DNA from: Candidatus Borrarchaeota archaeon
GTDB taxonomy: Archaea > Asgardarchaeota > Sifarchaeia > Borrarchaeales > Borrarchaeaceae
DNA length: 11,850 bases
NCBI GenBank assembly: GCA_016840645.1
Contig: JAEORY010000079.1
Location: forward strand, 1 to 11,850
Reading direction: 5' to 3'
Position numbers and translations under genes: made by a program. The notes under the pieces were generated by a model. It made no database searches. It was not told the origin of the DNA and worked only from the letters and a program-made list of their open reading frames with translations. Shown here piece by piece: positions 8,000 to 9,032 of the stretch. The first letter of the stretch is position 1, and each line of letters starts with the position of its first letter.

Positions 8000-9032
8000 A
8001 TGGAAAGAGGCCGCCTACCTAGTGACGTGCGGGGAGAGTTAATCACTAAAGCACAGGAGGCGACAAACCCTGAATGGGGTTATAAGCCTGCTGAACGTCC
8101 TATTGAAGAGCATTTAGCCTTTGGAATAATCAATTTAGATAAACCTGCTGGACCAACAAGTCATGAAGTTGTAGCATGGGTCAAAAGAATCCTGGAATTA
8201 AAGAAAGCAGGACACGGAGGGACTCTAGAGTTCTGTAATACAATTTACGGAACAGAGTAATCCTGGAGTGACTGGTATTCTCCCGATCGCCTTGGAACGT
8301 GCTACAAAAGTTGTTCAAAGTTGGCTTCCTGCTGGAAAAGAGTACATCTGCATAATGCGTCTTCACAAAGAAGTAGATCACGAAAAAATTGAGGCGATAT
8401 GTCAAGAGTTTACAGGCCCACTTTATCAACGTCCTCCACTAAGATCTTCTGTAAAAAGACGCTTAAGAATCCGTAGAGTATATTATACAAATGTATTAGA
8501 AATTTTAGGAACAAATGTGCTCATTCGAGTCGGTTGTGAAGCAGGATTCTACATGAGGAAGTTGGTGCATGATATTGGCGAAGTGTTGGGCACGGGGGCT
8601 CATATGTTAGAGCTAAGAAGAACGCGTGCAGGTCCATTCAAGGAGGATGACACTTTTGTTACACTTCTTGAAGTAAACGATGCATATCACTATTGGAAAG
8701 AGGATGGAAATGAACAGTATCTGCGTAAGGTAATACAACCTGTGGAAGAAGGCTTAGTTCACCTTCCAAAACTGGTGATTCGAGATTCTGCAGTTGATGC
8801 AATATGCCATGGGGCAAAATTAACGGCGCCTGGTGTATTACAGTTAAGTGATAATATCAAACCAGGTGCTACTGTAGCTATATTTACTCAGAAAGGCGAA
8901 GCAATTGGTATTGCTGAGGCAACTATGTTAAGTAAAGAGATTCTTGAAATAGATCATGGCGTAGTTGCTCTAACAAAGAAAGTTATAATGCCACGCTCTA
9001 CATATCCAGAGTGGAAAGCATTTAAAAAATAG
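8000..9032 (+). CDS. cbf5: tRNA/rRNA pseudouridine synthase Cbf5, intron-interrupted (join 8000-8228, 8260-9032)
   Basis: Cbf5/dyskerin homologue, the catalytic subunit of H/ACA guide RNPs (with Nop10, Gar1 and L7Ae), which converts U to pseudouridine in rRNA and can act on U55 of tRNA. Read straight through, the frame stops at TAA 8258-8260. Removing 8229-8259 joins the exons into 333 residues plus stop, the normal archaeal length. The junction then reads AGHGGTLDPGVTG, with the catalytic Asp77 codon split G|AT. Layout: N-terminal extension 1-40, TruB catalytic domain about 40-235 ([14 protein letters not shown]; the [15 protein letters not shown] segment at 169-183, where I would expect Thr for Phe), PUA domain about 246-325. 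ATG 8000 has GGTGA (7991-7995) 4 nt upstream. All key elements survive after splicing, so this is an intact gene and not a pseudogene. Confidence 0.93.
8219..8264 (+). other. Bulge-helix-bulge splice motif with a 31-nt mRNA intron (8229-8259)
   Basis: The RNA folds into a canonical hBHBh'. Outer helix: 8219-8222 with 8261-8264 (one G-U). Central 4-bp helix: CUCU 8223-8226 with AGAG 8254-8257. Three-nt bulges: AGA 8227-8229 and UAA 8258-8260. Inner intron helix: 8230-8238 with 8245-8253 (9 bp, one G-U), loop 8239-8244. Cutting after the second base of each bulge, as the archaeal tRNA splicing endonuclease does, removes 8229-8259. The intron length is not a multiple of 3, so only splicing restores the frame. 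BHB introns in archaeal cbf5 mRNA are established in Crenarchaeota. Splicing here is predicted, not shown. Confidence 0.92.

What the first reader, a model, noticed from the sequence alone, without database searches (positions are those of the whole stretch)
8219..8264. Protein-coding intron in cbf5, with the catalytic aspartate codon created by splicing
The cbf5 frame is broken in the most conserved part of the active site. The break coincides exactly with a canonical hBHBh' fold: 4-bp outer helix, 3-nt bulges, 4-bp central helix, 9-bp inner helix. Excising 8229-8259 restores AGHGGTLDPGVTG, with the Asp77 codon split G|AT. The unspliced message stops at a UAA that is itself the 3' bulge, so it yields only an inactive 86-residue peptide. 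cbf5 BHB introns are known in Crenarchaeota; this one is very short (31 nt), and its lineage may not be among those described. Every functional Cbf5 molecule would depend on tRNA-type splicing.
Basis: partly seen in the sequence, partly recalled or inferred. Interest (0 to 1): 0.9.

Follow-up and report, generated by a model that had tools for sequence, protein, structure and literature searches.

The report
Active-site intron in an Asgard gene
In an Asgard archaeon (a relative of the ancestors of complex cells) the gene for an RNA-modifying enzyme is interrupted by a 31-letter intron exactly inside the codon of its catalytic amino acid, at the same spot as introns known from some heat-loving archaea.

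Summary
The window belongs with Candidatus Borrarchaeum (Asgard). Its cbf5 frame breaks at 8229-8259, exactly at a 4/3/4/3/9 hBHBh' element; excision restores a 333-residue Cbf5 with Asp77 split G|AT. Three Borrarchaeum assemblies have the intron at the same base, 30, 31 and 35 nt. So do nine genomes of three other Asgard families (one placed by hand). Helices covary: 17 two-sided changes, 0 of 500 shuffles. Relatives encode two EndA-type proteins and RtcB. It is very probably spliced; no RNA evidence exists here.

It is a new member of a known kind: Yokobori et al. 2009 (PMC2738675) place crenarchaeal cbf5 introns, 16-44 nt, at this same codon position. New is the Asgard host: two literature searches returned nothing; a third listed seven papers, not opened. 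The shared site suggests an old intron lost repeatedly; parallel insertion or transfer is not excluded. Further, all 24 distinct introns of length 3n that I read carry an in-frame stop (10.5 expected), as if read-through of unspliced message were selected against.

The parts
8000..8228 (+). cbf5 exon 1 (76 codons plus the first base of the Asp77 codon)
8229..8259 (+). 31-nt BHB intron, starts AGTTC, ends GAGTA
   Evidence: congeners
8260..9032 (+). cbf5 exon 2 (last two bases of Asp77 codon to stop): TruB_N remainder, TruB_C_2, PUA
8219..8222 (+). outer helix, 5' strand (exon 1)
   Evidence: weak in thermodynamic prediction
8261..8264 (+). outer helix, 3' strand (exon 2)
8223..8226 (+). central helix, 5' strand (exon 1)
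8254..8257 (+). central helix, 3' strand (intron)
8227..8229 (+). 5' bulge AGA, cut expected after 8228
8258..8260 (+). 3' bulge TAA, cut expected after 8259; also the stop codon of the unspliced frame
8230..8238 (+). inner helix, 5' strand (intron)
8245..8253 (+). inner helix, 3' strand (intron)

Best explanation
A tRNA-type (bulge-helix-bulge) intron sits in the cbf5 gene of a Candidatus Borrarchaeum. The transcript folds so that the two exon ends pair with the intron and with each other. The heteromeric splicing endonuclease (EndA alpha plus beta) cuts after the second base of each 3-nt bulge (8228|8229 and 8259|8260), RtcB-type ligase joins the exons and so creates the catalytic Asp77 codon, and the spliced message gives full-length Cbf5. 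Shown here: the sequence anatomy, conservation of site and of pairing, purifying selection on the exons, and presence of the enzymes' genes in congeners. Inferred: cutting, ligation, the alpha/beta assembly of EndA, and that unspliced message makes no active enzyme.
For: Exact BHB at the frame break, and a restored 333-aa Cbf5. Same base in B. weybense (35 nt), B. yapensis (31 nt) and Borrarchaeota Yap75.bin3.45 (30 nt), named, introns. Same base in Asgard families f6 (4 genomes), f12 (4) and f7 (1) (L012 of f12 was missed by the script and placed by hand). Covariation on the 11 distinct of 13 Asgard rows: 96.2% of cells paired against 85.9% shuffled, 17 two-sided changes, 0 of 500 shuffles as high; slid controls 0-5. 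At one central pair an exon base and an intron base change together (A-U 7, U-A 4 of 11). Exon 2, window against B. yapensis and B. weybense: dN 0.023 and 0.020, dS 0.147 and 0.247; exon 1: dN 0.006 and 0.012, dS 0.106 and 0.084. Two EndA-type genes in each of three congeners: one is closest to solved EndA chains 3p1z/3ajv (E 5.6e-42 and 1.4e-40), the other also matches EndA chains. RtcB in the same three. [quoted passage not shown]
Against: No RNA data. The window's own genome is not held, so a second cbf5 there cannot be excluded directly. The thermodynamically preferred register weakens the outer helix. The outer helix is imperfect in three f6 genomes (L017, L018, L023: 1, 0 and 0 contiguous pairs in strict register), and two of 11 Asgard rows break outer pair 4 and one outer pair 3. 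L012's inner helix starts only after two mismatched positions (my reading of the sequence). The 30-nt rows for the covariation count were anchored on the splice sites by me, which favours the structure. For the most distant congener (L035) the fixed-window exon 1 comparison gives only 67% DNA identity, which I take for a length difference near the N terminus but did not check.
Confidence: 0.94

Rival explanations
1. Assembly error or decaying pseudogene.
For: The frame is broken, and the relatives that I could compare are metagenome assemblies (titles).
Against: Three named Borrarchaeum assemblies have breaks at the same base with insert lengths 30, 31 and 35 and a preserved BHB; exons are under purifying selection; a single Cbf5 in G001.
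Confidence: 0.01
2. Recoding (frameshift or stop read-through), or two separate polypeptides that assemble.
For: The second half is an open ORF with a GTG at 8268.
Against: Neither yields the catalytic Asp: in 52 of 53 introns the unspliced codon is GAG or GAA, in one GTT. One frameshift or read-through mechanism does not fit Asgard inserts of 29, 30, 31, 32, 35 and 41 nt at one site. The BHB covaries.
Confidence: 0.03
3. On origin: the Asgard and thermoproteotal introns are independent insertions into one preferred target, or spread by transfer of cbf5, not remnants of one ancestral intron.
For: Close relatives lack the intron (f2, same class as Borrarchaeum; f8 and f13 beside f12). The exon target around the Asp codon is protein-constrained, so a hotspot is conceivable. 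The fewest changes of intron state on the Cbf5 tree are 11.
Against: Same base in all 52 introns that I placed; losses are inferred in Desulfurococcales (PMC2738675, abstract). A single clade of intron-bearing Asgard rows is not rejected on an Asgard tree (p-AU 0.236).
Confidence: 0.45

Closest known systems
cbf5 introns of Desulfurococcales and Sulfolobales (Watanabe et al. 2002: recalled, and seen cited only; Yokobori et al. 2009, PMC2738675: abstract, sections 3, 5 and 8 and passages read)
   Same: Same gene, same position (after the first base of the catalytic Asp codon), BHB recognition, 16-44 nt; Sulfolobus tokodaii and Sulfurisphaera ohwakuensis also 31 nt.
   Different: Host is Asgard (kingdom Promethearchaeati), not a crenarchaeon. 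By anatomy the BHB here is the conventional form, whereas all but two of the seven newly drawn in that paper are called unconventional.
tRNA and rRNA BHB introns of Archaea
   Same: Splicing element and presumed enzymes.
   Different: Located in a protein-coding message. A 2020 paper calls the crenarchaeal cbf5 intron the only such further BHB intron reported to date (PMC7714728, passage).
[quoted passage not shown]
   Same: EndA cuts an mRNA.
   Different: Not an intron inside a coding sequence.

Membership tests
archaeal cbf5 BHB intron | lies in cbf5 | tested here: met
   Pfam DKCLD, TruB_N, TruB_C_2, PUA
archaeal cbf5 BHB intron | inserted between bases 1 and 2 of the catalytic Asp codon | tested here: met
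   published position
archaeal cbf5 BHB intron | BHB with cut sites after the second bulge base giving the borders | tested here: met
   outer helix weak in ViennaRNA
archaeal cbf5 BHB intron | length 16-44 nt | tested here: met
   31 nt; Asgard range 29-41; published range
archaeal cbf5 BHB intron | host has a heteromeric EndA | tested here: met
   Two PF01974 genes in three congeners; that they assemble is inferred. Not discriminating: of 227 Asgard genomes, by my count of its table, 189 have two or three, 37 one, 1 none
archaeal cbf5 BHB intron | splicing shown by cDNA or in vitro cleavage | not testable with these tools
   no RNA data
archaeal cbf5 BHB intron | common descent with the published introns | tested here: inconclusive
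   same base; Cbf5 tree largely unresolved at depth

The most novel reading that the evidence does not exclude
The cbf5 intron was present before Asgard archaea and Thermoproteota separated and has been lost many times, which would make it one of the oldest traceable introns in a protein gene. It persists because it is used: selection keeps the unspliced message from being read through, as the in-frame stops in all 24 distinct 3n-length introns read here suggest, so that Cbf5 supply is gated by EndA/RtcB activity.
Probability: 0.3. Interest if true: 0.8.

Novelty: new member of a known kind. Interest (0 to 1): 0.56.

Why it matters
It extends the known BHB intron of an archaeal protein gene to the Asgard archaea, held to be the closest known relatives of eukaryotes (recalled), at the same base. 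That makes the age of the intron testable, and it bears on gene prediction: software that knows no such introns will probably report a truncated cbf5 in these genomes (inference). The in-frame-stop pattern, a signature that I recall from eukaryotic introns, suggests that unspliced archaeal message is translated and policed.

Tried and rejected
Rfam gathering scan and ARAGORN on the window found nothing. The idea that a two-gene EndA marks intron-bearing Asgard was dropped: by my count 189 of 227 Asgard genomes have two or three PF01974 genes, and two intron-bearing ones show only one (G025, G051; 83% and 70% complete). The AU test of f1 plus all thermoproteotal intron rows as one clade (rejected, p 0.000115) says little, because those thermoproteotal rows are not a clade themselves; the two other tests of that call did not finish, and one of them (intron-bearing Asgard rows) was run instead on an Asgard tree. 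My first blastn comparison used the wrong locus and was replaced; the first pattern scan missed minus-strand loci and was replaced. A pattern miscalled L102 as intact and mis-set L012; L102 was corrected and L012 by hand (still shows L012 wrongly). L122 (a second, long-branch cbf5 with a 17-nt insert on a 4-kb contig of G052) was left out of the Asgard counts as possible contamination, but it is among the A+ rows and the 53 introns. Left out of the tree: intein-bearing L124-L127, L128 (same gene as L025), L047, and loci that repeat others (L033-L035, L084-L088). One search dropped 19 further rows and seven, as near-duplicates or long branches. L036-L038 were put in group A by guess (their titles say Methanobacteriaceae or archaeon); they carry no intron.

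Full report
Identity. The window is a ribosomal-protein/secY/adk/cbf5 cluster (gene names by my reading of the frames, five distinct proteins of them checked with Pfam). Its own assembly is not held. The nearest relatives, named, are Candidatus Borrarchaeum weybense and B. yapensis (95% Cbf5 identity over exon 2; 94.2% and 94.5% DNA identity over about 10.9 kb) and Borrarchaeota Yap75.bin3.45 (85%; 78.6% DNA). NCBI places Borrarchaeum in Candidatus Borrarchaeota, kingdom Promethearchaeati, i.e. Asgard.

The break. cbf5 reads as ORFs of 86 and 254 residues in different frames, carrying DKCLD and TruB_N/TruB_C_2/PUA. Excising 8229-8259 gives one 333-residue protein with GHGGTLDPGVTG. The excised stretch and its flanks form a complete hBHBh' element. 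It was the only element of its grade on either strand of the window; 29 of 60 shuffles held at least one with the inner helix at 6 bp, and the mean was 0.017 with 9 bp. The folding z-score of 8209-8274 is -3.13. ViennaRNA slightly prefers a neighbouring register of the outer helix; central and inner helices are stable in either case.

Same site in relatives. A relatives search (55 of 59 genomes with a match at E 1e-30) and an Asgard-wide search (215 of 227 with a match at E 1e-10) showed short open frames in some genomes. DNA reading gives introns at the same base in 3 Borrarchaeum genomes (the fourth congener, G003, 69% complete, has no cbf5 match in either search), 4 genomes of family f6, 4 of f12 (one placed by hand) and 1 of f7. 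With the window that is 13 sequences, 29-41 nt. I read DNA from only part of the 215, and the match list was cut off; genomes with two matches that were not listed (such as G374, G385, G493) were not read. The 45 rows of group A- have an unbroken site; three of them (L036-L038) were put in that group by guess and two (L039, L135) are identical. Family f2, the same class as Borrarchaeum, is uninterrupted (L010).

Thermoproteota. A search of 300 genomes (285 with a match, only the best-scoring matches listed) gave 62 cbf5 loci whose DNA I read (30 returned as loci, 32 chosen because their frame was broken or held a stop; so 62 is not a random sample). 39 have the intron at the same base, 18-39 nt. 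Intron lengths of 36 nt (L109, L110) and 39 nt (L118) equal those printed for Staphylothermus and Ignisphaera aggregans, which is my inference for who they are. In the listed matches of 74 of 77 Thermoplasmatota and 77 of 80 Halobacteriota genomes with a match I saw no break at the intron site: splits there fall elsewhere or at contig ends, and the eight rows that hold a stop show no added length of intron size (arithmetic on the printed coordinates). These two surveys were read from tables, not from DNA.

Structure is under selection. On 11 distinct Asgard rows (of 13), 96.2% of cells pair, 6 pairs show two-sided changes and 17 cells change on both sides, with 0 of 500 shuffles as high for each of these; the count of further pair types is not exceptional (276 of 500). 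On 43 distinct rows (of 52) of both phyla, 93.0% pair and 59 cells change on both sides (0 of 500); the number of pairs with two-sided change is not exceptional (160 of 500). The rows were anchored on the splice sites by me, which favours the structure; slid controls are far lower. The tool itself warns that related rows can exceed every shuffle.

Machinery. Each of three Borrarchaeum genomes has two PF01974 proteins. One aligns to solved EndA chains (3p1z, 3ajv) and keeps the His and Lys of the stretches gpgidHspliv and vrKKf. The other aligns best to other EndA chains and lacks the His in that column; reading the pair as catalytic alpha and structural beta subunit is my inference. RtcB is present in the same three. 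So the tools for BHB splicing are there; two EndA genes are found in most Asgard genomes, with or without the intron.

Unspliced message. In 52 of 53 introns the unspliced codon would be Glu in place of Asp. In 11 of 53 the intron shifts the frame without a stop inside it, and in 42 there is a stop within or at the intron. All 24 distinct introns of length 3n hold an in-frame stop, against a mean of 10.5 and a maximum of 15 in 500 loop shuffles; of the 25 other distinct introns 15 do, which is not exceptional (mean 9.3, maximum 17). Many of the thermoproteotal 3n introns were picked because the table showed a stop, so I checked for overlooked stop-less ones: 110 rows that span the site without a stop have at most 9 extra nt. 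Unlisted genomes and the Asgard table were not checked in this way. Taking one intron per group by hand (17), all have a stop and the product of shuffle probabilities is 2e-7; in 6 of these the stop lies in the unshuffled arms and counts as certain. The grouping was made by eye and the idea arose after seeing the data. I read it as selection against read-through of unspliced message; this fits Yokobori et al.'s proposal that the intron is a negative regulator but does not prove it.

Origin. The Cbf5 tree (127 rows, quick method) leaves many deep forks open and needs at least 11 changes of intron state. Intron-bearing Asgard rows are not one branch on it (at least 3 changes forced by starred branches, L122 included), but an Asgard tree of 54 rows does not reject 12 of them as one clade (p-AU 0.236). 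Common descent with many losses, repeated insertion at a constrained target, and transfer all remain possible; the identical base in all 52 introns makes me favour descent slightly.

Literature. Searches for cbf5+intron+Asgard (0 papers), Borrarchaeota+intron (0), Asgard+bulge-helix-bulge+intron (7, seen as listing only) and two wider ones (of their papers only PMC2738675 and PMC7714728 were opened) showed no title or abstract that reports a cbf5 intron in Asgard. The library lacks most subscription papers and all preprints. A search on 3n introns with in-frame stops (10 of 75 papers listed, listing only) showed mostly eukaryotic work. The main text of PMC2738675 does not use the words 'stop codon', 'in-frame' or 'premature'.

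Verdict. Real, correctly interpreted in its essentials, a new member of a known kind in a lineage where my searches found none described.

Noticed in passing
L124:204-2711, L125:129-2636, L126:134-2704, L127:190-2757: Cbf5 of four other Asgard genomes (G021, G047, G046, G050) is an 836-857 aa frame with an intein (Pfam Intein_splicing, LAGLIDADG_3) inserted after the conserved RKL motif. So this gene is interrupted by two unrelated kinds of element in one phylum, though not together in any sequence I read. Four papers hold both 'intein' and 'cbf5' (listing only); none has either word in its title or abstract.
   Followed up: partly
L122 (G052:C131:500-2600): A second, long-branch cbf5 with a 17-nt BHB insert, beside an uninterrupted copy (L123) in the same bin; possibly contamination.
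   Followed up: partly
24 distinct 3n introns: In-frame stop codons in every cbf5 intron read here whose length is a multiple of three, at different positions and with all three stop codons.
   Followed up: partly
Asgard genomes: By my count 189 of 227 Asgard genomes carry two or three PF01974 (EndA) genes, so a heteromeric splicing endonuclease seems general in the phylum.
   Followed up: partly
L036, L037: Records titled Methanobacteriaceae archaeon hold a Cbf5 57-58% identical to that of Borrarchaeum; on the Cbf5 tree they group with L038 only, and the labels may be wrong.
   Followed up: no
G001:C1:13917-15008: A second RtcB-like gene in B. weybense, besides the standard one.
   Followed up: no
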